The notes under the pieces were generated by a model. It was not told the DNA's origin, did no database searches, and saw nothing but the letters and a program-made list of their open reading frames with translations. Shown piece by piece: positions 23,928 to 54,173 of a stretch of DNA of 64,000 bases (positions are counted from its first letter, which is position 1; each line of letters opens with the position of its first letter). Origin of the DNA: Ruania zhangjianzhongii (GTDB lineage Bacteria > Actinomycetota > Actinomycetes > Actinomycetales > Beutenbergiaceae); the NCBI RefSeq assembly GCF_008000995.1, contig NZ_CP042828.1:682001-746000 (forward strand), written 5' to 3'. The position numbers were made by a program, and so were the translations under genes.

Positions 23928-24227
23928 ATGCCGAAGAAGATCGATCCCGAGCTGCGTGAGCGCGCGGTGCGGATGGTGCGTGAGCACCAGCAGGACTACC
24001 CGTCGGTGACGGCCGCGTCGAAGGCCGTGGCCGAGCGGCTCGGATTGGGCCGAGAGAGCGTGCGTCGCTGGGTGGCCCAAGCCGAGATCGACGCGGGCGC
24101 CAAGCCGGGCGTGACGAGCGAGGAGCACGCTGAGATCAAGCGGCTCAAGGCCGAGAACAAGCGGCTGCGCGAGGACGTGGAGATCCTCCGCGCGGCAACG
24201 ACTTTCTTCGTGTCAATGTCAAAGTGA
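23928..24227 (+). pseudogene. IS3 orfA, disrupted by IS110 after codon 94
   Basis: Start ATG at 23928, 9 bp after AGGAGG. 94 codons encode the helix-turn-helix and leucine-zipper-like region of IS3 OrfA (MPKKIDPELRERAVRMV .. EIKRLKAENKRLREDVEIL) up to ATTFF. The frame then enters IS110 and stops at 24227. Joining base 24210 to base 25526 restores V-G-E-L-D-P-R-N-R and a stop at 25552-25554, giving the standard OrfA end and a 103-residue protein. Confidence 0.9.
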
Positions 24228-24444
24228 TCGTGCCCGATCGGGGTTCGCTCGTTTCTTCGCTGCCCCGGGTTACGAACGGCACTCGGTGGCTTCTCTCCGA
24301 TGTGCGGCCTCGGTCGGGCGCCCTGTCGGCAGCGGGTGCGTGGCTTGATAGGAGCCTGCCTGCGAGTTTCGCGCTGAATTGAGGCGTGCCCGCCTCGCTG
24401 CCGACAGGGCGCCCGAATAGCCCGTCGACGTAGGAGGTCCCTGG
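24212..24444 (+). ncRNA. Putative IS110 bridge RNA
   Basis: The leader between the IS110 left end and the transposase has two loops. The first (stem GTTCG 24243-24247 / CGAAC 24273-24277) contains TTTCTTCG at 24252-24259, identical to the 8 bases left of the insertion, and CCCCG at 24263-24267, the reverse complement of the 5 bases right of it. The second sits on a perfect 20-bp stem (24315-24334 / 24396-24415) and contains ATAGGAGC at 24348-24355, identical to the right end of the element (25517-25524), and ATTGA at 24378-24382, complementary to the left end (24213-24217). This is the bispecific guide layout of IS110 bridge RNAs. RNA ends are not mapped. Confidence 0.75.
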
Positions 24445-25515
24445 ATGGTCATGATCGGCACCGACTCGCACAAGCGCACCCACACGGTCGTGGCGCTCGA
24501 CGAAGTCGGCAGAAGACTCGGCACCAAGACGGTCCGGACCAACGCCGAGGGCCACCTCGCGCTGGTCGAGTGGGCCACACAGTTCGCCGACCACGACGAG
24601 CACGGCGTCAGGTTCGCCTTGGAGGACTGCCGCCACCTCACCCGCCGGCTGGAATCCGACCTCTTGGCTGCGGGTCAACGCGTGCTGCGGGTGCCGACTC
24701 GGCTCATGGCCGGTGCTCGCCGCAGCAGCCGCGAACCTGGTAAGTCCGACCCGATCGACGCCGAGGCCGTAGCCCTGGCTGCGCTACGTCACCCCGACCT
24801 TCCCGTCGCTGAGCTGGACGGACCTGCGCGTGAGGTCAAGCTTCTGTCTGATCACCGTCATGACCTGGTGGTTCAGCGGTCCCGCATCGCTCAACAGGTT
24901 CGCTGGCACCTCCACGAGCTGGACCCGGACCTGATGATCCCCAGCCGCGGCCTGCGACGCCAGAAGGTCGTACGTGAGCTGCTGGCGGAACTGGAACGCT
25001 TCGACGGCGTCGTGGCCAGGCTTGCCCGGCGACACCTGCTGCGCTGCCAGGAGCTGACTACACAGATCAACGACCTCGAGCGAGAGTTGCGGGACCTGGT
25101 TCGTCGGCTCGCTCCCTCGCTACTTGAGATCCCCGGCTGCGGCGTGCTGTCCGCAGCCGTGATCGTCGGCGAGACAGCCGGAGTGCACCGCTTCCGCGAC
25201 AAGGACGCCTACGCCCGCTTCACAGGCACAGCGCCGGTGCCGGTCTGGTCGGGATCCAGCGCGGGCAAGGTTCGGCTCAACCGAGGCGGCAATCGGTCCG
25301 TCAACTGCGCCCTGCACATGATCGCCGTGACCCAGGCCCGCGGCGTCGGGCCGGGCCGGCCCTACCTCGACAAGCAGTTGGCCCGCGGCAAGGACCGCGT
25401 AGCCGCCCTGAGGCTGTTGCGCCGGCGCCTTTCCGATGTCGTCTTTGCGGCTCTTCGCGCCGACCTACGTGCAGCCCAGCAGCCCGCCGCGTCGCCTGTT
25501 CAACTCGCGGCTTGA
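24445..25515 (+). CDS. IS110-family transposase (DEDD recombinase)
   Basis: 356 residues, apparently intact. The N-terminal RuvC-like DEDD domain has GTDSHKRTHT, the Glu-Asp of ALEDCRH, and KSDPIDAEAVA. The C-terminal Tnp domain has IPGCGVLSAAVIVGE and the SGSSAGKVRLNRGGNR segment that holds the catalytic Ser. The GTAGGAGG ribosome site precedes the ATG at 24445 or the ATG two codons later. It would act with the RNA encoded in the leader. Confidence 0.95.
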   Translation: MVMIGTDSHKRTHTVVALDEVGRRLGTKTVRTNAEGHLALVEWATQFADHDEHGVRFALEDCRHLTRRLESDLLAAGQRVLRVPTRLMAGARRSSREPGKSDPIDAEAVALAALRHPDLPVAELDGPAREVKLLSDHRHDLVVQRSRIAQQVRWHLHELDPDLMIPSRGLRRQKVVRELLAELERFDGVVARLARRHLLRCQELTTQINDLERELRDLVRRLAPSLLEIPGCGVLSAAVIVGETAGVHRFRDKDAYARFTGTAPVPVWSGSSAGKVRLNRGGNRSVNCALHMIAVTQARGVGPGRPYLDKQLARGKDRVAALRLLRRRLSDVVFAALRADLRAAQQPAASPVQLAA

Positions 25516-25550
25516 CATAGGAGCATCGGGGAGCTCGACCCCCGCAACCG

Positions 25551-26525
25551 CTGATCGCGGCGTTCATCGACGATCAGCGCTCCCAGGGGCACGCGGTCGA
25601 GTCGATCTGCCGGGTCCTGCGCGAGCAGGGCCTTCAGATCGCCGCGCGCACCTACCGGTCCTGGAAGCAGGCCGGCCGGACGGTCGCTGCTCGCACTGTC
25701 ACCGACGCCCAGGTGATCGACGCGGTCCGGGAGCTGGCGTGGACCATCGACGTCCACGGCCGGCGCCGGCTCGCGGCCGAAGGCCTCTACGGGCGGCGGA
25801 AGATGACCGCCCTGGTGCGCCGCACCGTGCTGCCCGAGGCTTCGGCGGGCGCGGTGGACCGGGCCATGCACACGTTGGGCCTAGCGGGGGTGCGCCGCGA
25901 CAAGGGCGTGCGGACCACGATCCCGGCCAAGGACGGCAAGCGGGCCGGTGACCTGCTGGACCGGGACTTCACCGCCGCAGCGCCCAACCGGACCTGGGTC
26001 ACCGACTTCACCTACGTCCGTACGTGGGCCGGGTTCGTCTACGTCGCCTTCATCGTCGACGTCTTCGCCCAGCGGATCGTGGCCTGGCATGTCGCCACGA
26101 CCAAGCAGACCGACCTGGTCATGGTGCCGCTGCGCATGGCGTTGTGGCACCGCGACCGCGAAGGACGTCCGACGGTCGTCGGGGAGCTGATCCACCACTC
26201 CGATGCCGGGTCCCAGTACACGTCCATCCGGCTCACCGAGCACCTCGAGCTCGAGGGCATCCGGCCCTCGATCGGATCGGTCGGGGATGCCTACGACAAC
26301 GCGCTGATGGAGACGATCAACGGCTTGTACAAGGCCGAGTGCATCCGCACCACCGTCTTCCACGACGGGCCCTACAAGACCATCGCCGACGTCGAGTACG
26401 CGACCGCCGGCTGGGTCGAGTGGTACAACAACAGGCGCCTGCACGGGACGCTGGGAATGATGACCCCAGTCGAGTACGAGCAGGACCACTACGCAGCCCT
26501 CAACCGAGAGCCGCAACCCGTATAG
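25551..26525 (+). CDS. IS3-family transposase OrfB (DDE integrase), frameshift product
   Basis: About 324 residues from the LIAAFIDDQR start that overlaps the orfA stop; an internal ATG at 25713 gives a shorter protein. It has the HTH_21 region and an rve DDE core: Asp in WVTDFTYV, Asp in HHSDAGSQY, Glu in YDNALMETINGLYK. In IS3 elements it is made as OrfAB by -1 frameshifting from orfA; here IS110 separates the two, so the normal fusion cannot form. The stop TAG lies directly against the ISL3 end. Confidence 0.9.
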   Translation: MIAAFIDDQRSQGHAVESICRVLREQGLQIAARTYRSWKQAGRTVAARTVTDAQVIDAVRELAWTIDVHGRRRLAAEGLYGRRKMTALVRRTVLPEASAGAVDRAMHTLGLAGVRRDKGVRTTIPAKDGKRAGDLLDRDFTAAAPNRTWVTDFTYVRTWAGFVYVAFIVDVFAQRIVAWHVATTKQTDLVMVPLRMALWHRDREGRPTVVGELIHHSDAGSQYTSIRLTEHLELEGIRPSIGSVGDAYDNALMETINGLYKAECIRTTVFHDGPYKTIADVEYATAGWVEWYNNRRLHGTLGMMTPVEYEQDHYAALNREPQPV

Positions 26526-26579: not shown

Positions 26580-26638
26580 ACGTCGAGGTCTCCCGAGGAT
26601 GAAGGCTCCTACACGCTCATCCTGAAAGACCTCGACGT
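26580..26638 (+). promoter_or_regulatory. Hairpin that hides the ISL3 transposase start codon
   Basis: ACGTCGAGGTCT (26580-26591) pairs with AGACCTCGACGT (26627-26638), whose last bases are the GT of the GTG start; an inner stem GGATGA/TCATCC lies within. The ISL3 relic has the same outer stem and a changed but still paired inner stem, GATGGA/TCCATC. Such a structure would limit translation from transcripts entering the element. Confidence 0.7.
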
Positions 26639-27968
26639 GCCCGACGCTACCGCCGGCGACCGCTCACGCGCGTTCGCCCACCCAGATCTGACCACCTTCT
26701 GCCGACTCGACGAGCTCGGCCTCGTCGTCACCGGCCAACGCCTCGAGTCCGACCGTGCGGTCGTCGCGTGCCGGGTCGCCGAAACCGACCAGTGGTGCCG
26801 CCGATGCGGCTGCGAAGGAACCCCGCGGGACACGGTCACCAGGCAGCTGGCCCACGAACCACTCGGCTGGCGACCTACCACGCTGCTGCTCACCATCCGC
26901 CGCTACCGATGCGCTGGCTGCGGGCACGTGTGGCGCCAAGACACCTCCCGGGCGGCCGAACCTCGGGCGAAGCTCTCGCGTCGCGGGCTGCGGTGGGCAC
27001 TTGAGGGGATCGTGATCGCTCACCTCACCGTCGCCCGGGTCGCCGAGGGTCTCGGGGTTGCCTGGGACACCGCTAACGACGCCGTCGTGGCCGAGGGCAA
27101 GCGGGTCCTGATCGACGACCCGGCACGGTTCGAGGGTGTCCGAGTCGTTGGCGTCGATGAACACGTGTGGCGCCACACCAGGCGTGGCGACAAGTACGTC
27201 ACCGTGATCATCGACCTCACCCCGATCCGTGATGGCACCGGCCCGGCACGGCTCCTGGACATGGTCGAGGGTCGCTCGAAGCAGGTGTTCAAGACCTGGC
27301 TCGCCACCCGGAGCGACACCTGGCGTGACGGCGTGGAAGTCGTCGCGATGGACGGGTTCAGCGGCTTCAAGACCGCCACCACCGAGGAGCTCCCCGACGC
27401 TGTCGCGGTCATGGATCCCTTCCACGTGGTCCGGTTGGCCGGCGACGCGTTGGACCGGTGTCGACGCCGGGTCCAGCAGGCCATCCACGGTCACCGCGGC
27501 CACAAGGGTGACCCGCTCTACTCCGCACGGCGAACGCTGCACACCGGTGCTGGGCTGCTCACTGACAAGCAGGCCAGCCGACTACGGGCACTGTTCGCCG
27601 GTGATGAGCACGTGCAGGTCGAGGCGACCTGGGGGATCTATCAGCGGATGATCGCGGCCTACCGCCACGAGGACCGACGCCAGGGCCGCGAGCTCATGAC
27701 CAAGCTGATCGAGTCGGTCAGCGACGGCGTCCCGGCCGCGCTGATCGAGGTCATCACGCTGGGCCGGACGTTGAAGAAGCGGGCCGCCGACGTGCTGGCC
27801 TACTTCGACCGCCCCGGCACCAGCAACGGGCCTACGGAGGCGATCAACGGCCGGCTCGAACACCTCCGCGGCTCAGCCCTCGGGTTCCGCAACCTCACCA
27901 ACTACATCGCCAGGTCCCTGCTCGAGATCGGCGGCTTCAGACCGCGACTACACCCTGGAATCGGATGA
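26637..27968 (+). CDS. ISL3-family transposase
   Basis: 443 residues, intact. N-terminal zinc finger (WCRRCGCEG .. CAGCGHVW), a helix-turn-helix (HLTVARVAEGLGVAWDTAND), then the DDE_Tnp_ISL3 core with Asp in VGVDEHVW, Asp in AMDGFSGFK and the C-terminal NGPTEAINGRLEHLRG Glu. The GTG start lies in the 3' arm of a hairpin. Confidence 0.95.
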   Translation: MPDATAGDRSRAFAHPDLTTFCRLDELGLVVTGQRLESDRAVVACRVAETDQWCRRCGCEGTPRDTVTRQLAHEPLGWRPTTLLLTIRRYRCAGCGHVWRQDTSRAAEPRAKLSRRGLRWALEGIVIAHLTVARVAEGLGVAWDTANDAVVAEGKRVLIDDPARFEGVRVVGVDEHVWRHTRRGDKYVTVIIDLTPIRDGTGPARLLDMVEGRSKQVFKTWLATRSDTWRDGVEVVAMDGFSGFKTATTEELPDAVAVMDPFHVVRLAGDALDRCRRRVQQAIHGHRGHKGDPLYSARRTLHTGAGLLTDKQASRLRALFAGDEHVQVEATWGIYQRMIAAYRHEDRRQGRELMTKLIESVSDGVPAALIEVITLGRTLKKRAADVLAYFDRPGTSNGPTEAINGRLEHLRGSALGFRNLTNYIARSLLEIGGFRPRLHPGIG

Positions 27969-44842: not shown

Positions 44843-44915
44843 GCGCCCGTAGCTTAATGGATAGAGCATCTGACTACGGATCAGAAGGTTGGGGGTTCGA
44901 GTCCCTCCGGGCGCG
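44843..44915 (+). tRNA. tRNA-Arg (ACG)
   Basis: 73 nt without an encoded CCA. Acceptor GCGCCCG pairs with CGGGCGC; D-arm GCTT/GAGC; anticodon stem TCTGA/TCAGA with loop CTACGGA, giving anticodon ACG (reads CGT and, after inosine editing, CGC/CGA). T-arm GGGGG-TTCGAGT-CCCTC. Discriminator G. Confidence 0.97.
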
Positions 44916-53914: not shown

Positions 53915-53947
53915 CATGTGGCACACTGGCGGGGTCGAACTGAAGTT

Positions 53948-54076
53948 CGCGCACTCCGGGGTCGGTGTAATTCCGAACCGGCGGTAATAGTCCGCGACCC
54001 GACCGCAGCCAGCGGCCGGTTGACCAGGTGGAACTCCTGGACCGACGGTGAAAGTCCGGATGGGAGGTAGTGCGCG
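53948..54076 (+). ncRNA. FMN riboswitch (RFN element)
   Basis: P1 arms CGCGCACT (53948-53955) and AGTGCGCG (54069-54076) enclose the conserved core: TCCGGGGTCGGTG, CCGAACCGGCGGT, AGTCCGCGAC, a variable arm, then GGAACTCCTGGACCGACGGT, GAAAGTCCGGATGGGAG. It binds FMN and turns down the riboflavin genes that follow. About 97 nt separate it from ribD, enough for the expression platform; no T-tract is present, so control by ribosome-site masking is more likely than termination. Confidence 0.97.
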
Positions 54077-54173
54077 CACGGCGGTCGGCGCCGGGTCGCC
54101 ATCCGTGGCCGGCCGGGCGTGCGGTCGTCGTCGCCGTCCCCGGGGCTTGCGCCCGAGCGCATGAGGAGACCCG

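What the first reader, a model, noticed from the sequence alone, without database searches (positions are those of the whole stretch)
24212..24444. Readable bridge RNA with guides matching both target and donor ends
Four guide segments are found in the expected order. Target loop: 8-nt identity to the left flank and 5-nt complement to the right flank. Donor loop, on a perfect 20-bp stem: 8-nt identity to the right end of the element and 5-nt complement to its left end. An 8-nt match in about 230 nt is expected by chance well under 1% of the time; two with paired complements is strong. The target loop appears compact, with both guides in a single hairpin loop, which differs from the larger internal loop of IS621.
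Basis: partly seen in the sequence, partly recalled or inferred. Interest (0 to 1): 0.75.

Follow-up and report, generated by a model that had tools for sequence, protein, structure and literature searches.

The report
Bridge RNA of an IS3-hitting IS110 element

Summary
Real, but one of four guides was misplaced. Window 24213-25527 is an IS110-group element (DEDD-Ser transposase) lying at the orfA/orfB junction of an IS3-family element. Its 232-nt leader encodes a bridge RNA with two internal loops, like IS621. Of 114 sequences scanned, 53 distinct elements of its subfamily were parsed. The 'compact hairpin' is rejected. Of 51 copies, 48 have IS3 homology on at least one side. Unlike IS621, target and donor core bases are never equal (0 of 46); the bases after each right guide largely fit the partner DNA instead, an extended 'handshake'. 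A sister branch enters promoters with leaderless layout. IS110 elements aimed at IS3 are known (ISEc21), so this is a new variant of a known kind. Nothing was tested at the bench.

The parts
24213..25527 (+). IS110-group element, 1315 bp (left end TCAATG..., right end ...ATAGGAGCATC)
   Evidence: ends fixed by relatives and by three close uninterrupted IS3 sites
24203..24212 (+). left target TTTCTTCG plus target positions 8-9 (TG), end of interrupted IS3 orfA
   Evidence: sequence; orfA homology
24220..24225 (+). -10 hexamer CAAAGT of the promoter that joined ends would form
   Evidence: 17 bp from TTGACA across the joined ends; A at 2 and T at 6 in 43 of 45
24232..24248 (+). target-binding loop, outer stem 5' arm
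24252..24259 (+). left target guide (LTG) TTTCTTCG
   Evidence: covaries with left flank, 0 of 20000 shuffles
   Evidence: pairs with 24284-24290 (T24287 bulged)
24284..24290 (+). inner stem 3' arm
24294..24298 (+). right target guide (RTG) TCTCC, pairs with GGGGA (one G-U)
   Evidence: covaries with right flank, 30 of 20000 shuffles on Watson-Crick pairs
24299..24302 (+). core/handshake bases GATG, complement of donor end CATC
24304..24319 (+). target-binding loop, outer stem 3' arm
24314..24334 (+). donor-binding loop long stem, 5' arm (first 6 nt compete with the target-loop stem)
   Evidence: 21 bp perfect with 24396-24416
24348..24355 (+). left donor guide (LDG) ATAGGAGC
   Evidence: identical to right end; variant ATAGAAGC matched in four plasmid copies
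24378..24382 (+). right donor guide (RDG) ATTGA
   Evidence: 52 of 52 rows pair with left end, five variants
24383..24386 (+). core/handshake bases GGCG, complement of target CGC(C)
24396..24416 (+). donor-binding loop long stem, 3' arm
24445..25515 (+). IS110 transposase, 356 aa; D7, E60, D102, D105 and S269
   Evidence: Pfam PF01548 and PF02371; IS621 match E 1.1e-10; conservation
25512..25517 (+). -35 hexamer TTGACA in the right end
   Evidence: 44 of 45
25517..25527 (+). left donor ATAGGAGC and donor bases CATC (positions 6-9)
25528..25532 (+). right target GGGGA
23931..24212 (+). interrupted IS3 orfA (HTH_Tnp_1)
   Evidence: Pfam PF01527 (searched as 23931-24224)
25528..26525 (+). interrupted IS3 orfB (rve domains; searched as 25713-26522)
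   Evidence: Pfam PF00665, PF13683, PF13333

Best explanation
The leader of this IS110-group element encodes a bridge RNA. When the element is excised as a circle, TTGACA of the right end and CAnnnT of the left end are joined 17 bp apart into a promoter that transcribes the leader and the transposase. The RNA folds into two stem-loops with internal loops. [quoted passage not shown] In the second, LDG ATAGGAGC and RDG ATTGA recognise the element's own right and left ends. The transposase cuts the top strands just after positions 8-9 and exchanges them. Target and donor have different bases at 8-9, and the bases after the RTG (GATG) and RDG (GGCG) fit the incoming partner strand better than their own, so pairing favours the exchanged state. 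The guides aim the subfamily mainly at the conserved orfA/orfB junction of IS3 elements. Shown by sequence: element ends, guide-site covariation, RNA covariation, promoter parts, targets. Inferred: transcription, circle, binding, cutting and order of steps.
For: Guides against sites, permuted over distinct combinations (53 elements): LTG 139 of 168 Watson-Crick pairs, 0 of 20000 shuffles reach it; RTG 74 of 115, 30 of 20000; RDG 52 of 52 rows and 5 of 5 types perfect, 176 of 20000. RNAalifold finds the two internal loops unprompted, 16 of 30 pairs changed on both sides; target-loop stems 96.9% paired against 86.1% shuffled, 0 of 500; the window's loop folded alone takes the same shape, with four extra weak pairs inside the loop. 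Promoter parts: TTGACA 44 of 45, A2 and T6 43 of 45 at 17 bp, at most 2 of 45 at 15, 16, 18 or 19 bp. IS3 homology on both sides 32 of 51, one side 16, none 3. Core bases differ in 46 of 46; the four bases after the RTG fit the donor by Watson-Crick at 13, 12, 12 and 11 of 14 distinct combinations; a complement running across the right-end/target junction is seen in three subfamilies, 0 of 20000 permutations. Catalytic residues in 39 open proteins: DEDD 39 of 39, Ser 37 of 39. Mechanistic frame from PMC11208160 and PMC11208158 (passages and one section).
Against: No transcript, circle or transposition was observed, and the element is a single copy in its genome. Some relatives do not obey: L005 inserts 4 nt, not 2, after the guide match; L021 has TTTCACCG against guide TTTCTTCG and no IS3 homology; L007 and L008 have RTG CGTCC against GCCGA (1 of 5); L049 and L052 have unmatched right flanks; L034 misses two LTG bases. 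For RTG, counting G-U weakens the test (396 of 20000), and the number of fully paired combinations is not above chance (5 of 23; 3,548 of 20,000). LDG covariation is weak (1,144 of 20000; seven types; L025, L028, L029 and L036 have an extra base in it). Guide and end of L019 were entered by hand. Permutations do not remove common descent. The handshake bases hardly vary inside the window's subfamily; donor-loop position 9 fits the donor (13 of 14), not the target (3 of 14), against the handshake reading. In one search an element's own junction was best of its row in only 8 of 26. The whole-leader minimum-energy fold shows the compact hairpin.
Confidence: 0.88

Rival explanations
1. One reading: the target loop is one compact hairpin (GGGGU/GCCCC) holding both target guides, with CCCC(G) as right target guide.
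For: Letters fit in the window; the whole-leader minimum-energy fold contains this hairpin; 92.8% of cells pair in the alignment.
Against: 0 pairs with change on both sides, no better than shuffles (375 to 500 of 500 reach each measure). The supposed guide does not follow the right flanks: 19,171 of 20,000 shuffles do as well for CCCCG and at least 13,186 of 20,000 at seven neighbouring placements; L122 keeps CCCCG against CAAGG. L016 and L030 lack CCCC but sit at the same kind of site.
Confidence: 0.03
2. The leader is only a structured 5' untranslated region or attenuator; target choice is made by the protein, and guide matches are by-products of descent.
For: The leader is strongly structured (z -3.96) and directly precedes the transposase gene; 22 of 51 rows share one LTG and one site, so matches could be inherited.
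Against: Guides change together with their sites: TATTTCG with TATTTCG, ATAGAAGC with ATAGAAGC, TCCTT with AAGGA, TCCCC with GGGGA, ACAAC with GTTGT, ATAGA with TCTAT.
Confidence: 0.04
3. The cores are in fact shared as in IS621; donor TC or target CN is misassigned, or the ancestral IS3 sites carried TC that was lost.
For: TC stands at both ends of the inserted element (left end TCAAT, right end CATC), as a duplicated core would.
Against: Homologous uninterrupted IS3 sites in the same genomes have no TC (L015/L110, L022/L115, L035/L109), and two extra bases would shift the orfA frame. Bases 8-9 on the left follow the target: L021 and L024 carry the same guides but have CC and CG.
Confidence: 0.1

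Closest known systems
IS621 and its bridge RNA (PMC11208160, PMC11208158; PDB 8wt6)
   Same: DEDD-Ser recombinase, bridge RNA in left end, two internal loops, guides of similar length in the order LTG-RTG-LDG-RDG, promoter formed across the joined ends, handshake bases after the right guides
   Different: IS621 has a CT core shared by target and donor; here 0 of 46 share the two core bases, and the handshake spans up to four bases; target is an IS3 junction, not REP elements
ISEc21 (PMC11187229)
   Same: IS110-type element with upstream non-coding region whose target lies inside IS3-family elements; no duplication of target bases
   Different: ISEc21 hits the codons round the second D of DDE in the IS3 transposase; this subfamily hits the orfA/orfB junction, mostly in actinobacteria
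ISCro4 transposase (PDB 9t56)
   Same: sequence relative, E 2e-10
   Different: its RNA and target were not compared here
IS900 (IS110 family by PMC8141618, passages; its target is recalled)
   Same: relevant to the sister subfamily only: recalled to insert next to start codons; no flanking target repeats (PMC8141618)
   Different: recalled target is ribosome-binding site plus start codon, not a -10 box plus start codon

Membership tests
IS110 family, IS110 group | DEDD RuvC-like domain plus Tnp domain with catalytic serine | tested here: met
   PF01548 E 5.4e-22, PF02371 E 2.5e-17; D7, E60, D102, D105 39 of 39; S269 37 of 39
IS110 family, IS110 group | long non-coding left end and short right end | tested here: met
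   left end 24213-24444 (232 nt), right end 25516-25527 (12 nt after the stop codon)
IS110 family, IS110 group | bridge RNA in left end with two internal loops carrying four guides | tested here: met
   by sequence and covariation only; LDG test weak
IS110 family, IS110 group | sigma70-like promoter reconstituted at the joined ends | tested here: met
   sequence parts only: 44 of 45 and 43 of 45
IS110 family, IS110 group | no terminal inverted repeats | not tested
   no formal search made
IS110 family, IS110 group | circular intermediate | not testable with these tools
   needs PCR or sequencing
IS110 family, IS110 group | insertion without duplication of target bases | tested here: met
   three close occupied/empty pairs out of nine comparisons; the other six were too distant
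IS621-type with shared CT core | identical core dinucleotide in target and donor | tested here: not met
   0 of 46
IS621-type with shared CT core | target loop is an internal loop with guides on opposite sides | tested here: met
Rfam family | match at gathering score in the leader | tested here: not met
   only FMN riboswitch and tRNA elsewhere in window

The most novel reading that the evidence does not exclude
In this branch of IS110 the shared core of IS621 is gone. Each loop's right arm is written as the complement of the recombinant top strand: about five bases for its own DNA, then up to four (window subfamily) or five to six (sister subfamily) for the partner's. Mismatched cores plus this long handshake make pairing itself drive the exchange in one direction, and the core bases of the product follow the top strand. 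With it, branches have been aimed at functional landmarks of other DNA: the orfA/orfB junction of IS3 elements, and promoters of leaderless genes (-10 box by LTG, start codon by RTG), where the right end then supplies AGGAG ahead of the start codon.
Probability: 0.52. Interest if true: 0.75.

Novelty: new variant of a known kind. Interest (0 to 1): 0.56.

Why it matters
It gives a natural series of guide-target re-programmings in one narrow family, with guides readable and some empty sites at hand. It makes an open question of bridge recombination directly testable: is a shared core needed, or can handshake pairing replace it? If it can, programmable recombinases need not keep a fixed core in the target.

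Tried and rejected
Rfam search of the window: nothing in the leader at gathering score. Other copies in the own genome: none found for either element. A search of 394 genomes of the class with a strict donor-loop pattern found only the window, so I turned to the protein (17 of 396 genomes of the order at E 1e-60). Viral contigs gave one weak hit, not used. The first parsing script matched nothing because of a wrong pattern, corrected. Considered and rejected: compact hairpin, attenuator, protein-only targeting, shared core. Papers: searches; passages of PMC12500396, PMC2516522 and PMC8141618 did not describe an IS110 aimed at the IS3 orfA/orfB junction or at leaderless promoters, nor did the listings; most subscription papers are not held and ISfinder could not be searched. 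No structure prediction was made.

Rows dropped: one search scanned 114 sequences (80 loci, 21, 12 plasmid loci, the window); 59 entries fitted the text pattern of the main subfamily. From then on I left out 7 as second fetches. One search shows that six were (same guides and flanks as a kept row) and that L090 was not; it was dropped by mistake. One search repeats the guide tests with L090: 53 elements, 52 with a left flank, 47 with a right end, 46 with both. lack L090 (52, 51, 46 and 45). changes no conclusion. Subfamilies 2 and 3 were read by other anchors. Alignment A1 holds 38 chosen rows, not all.

Partial calls: one search kept the best 80 of 168 relatives; 12 of 27 plasmid hits were fetched; two searches gave the best 12 loci each. 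In one search only one strand was scanned; one search repeats it on both. In one search the left flank of L093 was misread by the script, and 3 of the 13 rows (L038-L040) have other targets. L127 scored low because my anchor was off.

Full report
What is there. ORF 24445-25515 is an IS110 transposase (Pfam DEDD_Tnp_IS110 and Transposase_20; solved relatives IS621 and ISCro4). It is preceded by a 232-nt leader and followed by a 12-nt right end. Left of it lies IS3 orfA, right of it IS3 orfB, so the element is nested in an IS3 element. One match of each was found in the own genome.

Relatives. A scan of genome contigs kept the best 80 of 168 relatives, a search of 396 genomes of the order gave 17 with a strong match, and 12 of 27 plasmid hits were fetched. 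Reading leaders and ends side by side fixes the element as [TCAAT...ATAGGAGCATC]. Of 114 sequences scanned, 59 entries fitted the main subfamily's pattern; 53 are distinct.

Guides (first done on 52). LTG with left flank: 52 rows, 21 combinations, 0 of 20,000 shuffles reach the observed pairing; 38 of 52 rows pair over all eight bases when G-U is allowed, 49 over seven or more. RDG with left end: 52 of 52 rows, five kinds (TCAAT/ATTGA, TCAGT/ACTGA, TCTAT/ATAGA, GTTGT/ACAAC, TTAAT/ATTAA), 176 of 20,000. LDG with right end varies little, so its test is weak (1,144 of 20,000), but 40 of 47 rows pair fully and four Rhodococcus plasmid copies have ATAGAAGC in both places. RTG: the five bases before the constant GATGTGC pair with the first five of the right flank; 23 of 47 rows pair fully and 36 of 47 at four or more (kinds: TCCGC/GCGGA, TCGGC/GCCGA, TCCTT/AAGGA, TCCCC/GGGGA, and TCTCC/GGGGA with one G-U, the window among the last). 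30 of 20,000 shuffles reach it on Watson-Crick pairs, 396 when G-U is counted; the number of fully paired combinations alone is not above chance (3,548 of 20,000).

Rows that disobey are real: L005, L007, L008, L021, L034, L049, L052. L021 has the same guides as L024 but sits at a poorer match without IS3 homology, which looks like an off-target insertion.

Structure. RNAalifold on 38 chosen leaders finds, unprompted, an outer stem, an internal loop and an inner stem, and the same again for the donor part. In the target loop 14 of 20 pairs have changes on both sides; one pair is G-C in 21 rows and C-G in 17. The compact hairpin has none. Folded alone, the window's loop takes the IS621-like shape with four extra weak pairs; folded with the whole leader it does not, since GGGG can also pair with CCCC and the donor stem borrows six bases.

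Promoter. Joining right end and left end puts TTGACA 17 bp before CAnnnT (44 of 45 and 43 of 45; at other spacings at most 2 of 45). Transcription would begin about where the target-loop stem begins (24232); this start is inferred.

Target. Of 51 elements with a left junction (L090 not included), 32 have IS3 homology on both sides, 16 on one, 3 on none (L010, L021, L126); some contigs end before the other side. A pattern for uninterrupted junctions was found in 9 of 30 genomes searched, ten places, of which L111 and L112 are one place under two handles; nine of the ten have the spacing TTCTTCG-NNNN-GGAG. Of nine occupied/empty comparisons three were close (L015/L110 72 of 80 left and 90 of 110 right; L022/L115 72 of 80 and 101 of 110; L035/L109 67 of 80 and 78 of 110), and in them nothing is duplicated or lost at the junction.

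Core and handshake. In IS621 the top strands are cut just after a CT core common to target and donor, and bases after RTG and RDG ('handshake guides') pair with the partner's DNA after exchange (PMC11208158, passages). Here the junction follows target bases CG, CC, GG, CT, CA, TG or GC, and donor TC (43 of 46); they agree in 0 of 46. The four bases after RTG, GATG, pair with the donor by Watson-Crick at 13, 12, 12 and 11 of 14 distinct combinations (positions 9, 8, 7, 6), against 3, 1, 0 and 11 with the target (plus 14 G-U at position 7). The four after RDG, GGCG, pair with the target at 3, 10, 14 and 10, against 13, 1, 0 and 10 with the donor (plus 11 G-U at position 8). So the handshake is not perfect: position 9 of the donor loop fits the donor, not the target. 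Within the subfamily these bases hardly vary. Across subfamilies they do: GGGTAT with ATACCC, GCGTTT with AAACGC, GTAG with CTAG at three of four, and the complement runs on into the target (26 junction types, own mean 6.96, others 6.28, 0 of 20,000 permutations; own best in its row in 8 of 26).

Sister subfamily. In 11 relatives (46-52% identical) the right flank begins at ATG (10) or GTG (1), six bases after AGGAG of the right end; in the ten whose left junction is in the fetched DNA, TAnnnT stands a few bases before the left end (read by eye). Of 24 orthologous loci fetched for two such genes, 2 are the occupied copies, 18 were located uninterrupted, and 18 of 18 read TAnnnT-N6/7-ATG; 4 could not be located at 30 of 42 (loci, one genus). 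That is the layout of leaderless genes (recalled). LTGs follow left flanks (13 rows, 0 of 5,000). This was an excursion; it bears on the handshake reading and is listed under things noticed.

Prior work. Bridge RNAs, their guides, promoter and handshake are known (PMC11208160, PMC11208158; passages and one section). ISEc21 is an IS110 element that targets IS3 elements at another place (PMC11187229; passages and one section). The listings showed no description of an IS110 family aimed at the IS3 orfA/orfB junction. PMC11208160 analysed 5,511 targets, which may include members of this family unnamed.

Verdict. By sequence a genuine bridge RNA; three of four guides as read, the fourth relocated, compact loop rejected; new variant of a known kind by its unmatched cores.

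Noticed in passing
L093-L100, L102, L103, L105 (related loci): Sister subfamily of IS110 elements inserts between a -10-like box (TAnnnT) and a start codon; uninterrupted orthologues of two target genes show TAnnnT-N6/7-ATG in 18 of 18 located. Guides follow the -10 variant, and the right end supplies AGGAG six bases before the start codon.
   Followed up: partly
L123, L124, L125, L128 (Rhodococcus plasmids): Third subfamily with right end CAGAGGAG matched by LDG GAGAGGAG; three of four have a left flank like CACCGTTA and donor end CTAG.
   Followed up: partly
L117-L119, L122, L127: Right targets AAGGAG or GGGGAG resemble a ribosome-binding site at the start of the interrupted orfB, and RTG TCCTT resembles an anti-Shine-Dalgarno sequence.
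   Followed up: no
window 24203-24228: The insertion leaves orfA almost whole, ending soon inside the left end (ORF to 24227), while orfB loses its junction; whether truncated OrfA has an effect is unknown.
   Followed up: no
window 26637-27968: 443-aa ORF directly after the IS3 remnant looks by eye like another transposase (ISL3 type, recalled, not searched), so this may be a cluster of mobile elements.
   Followed up: no
window 53947-54077 and 44843-44915: FMN riboswitch and a tRNA.
   Followed up: no
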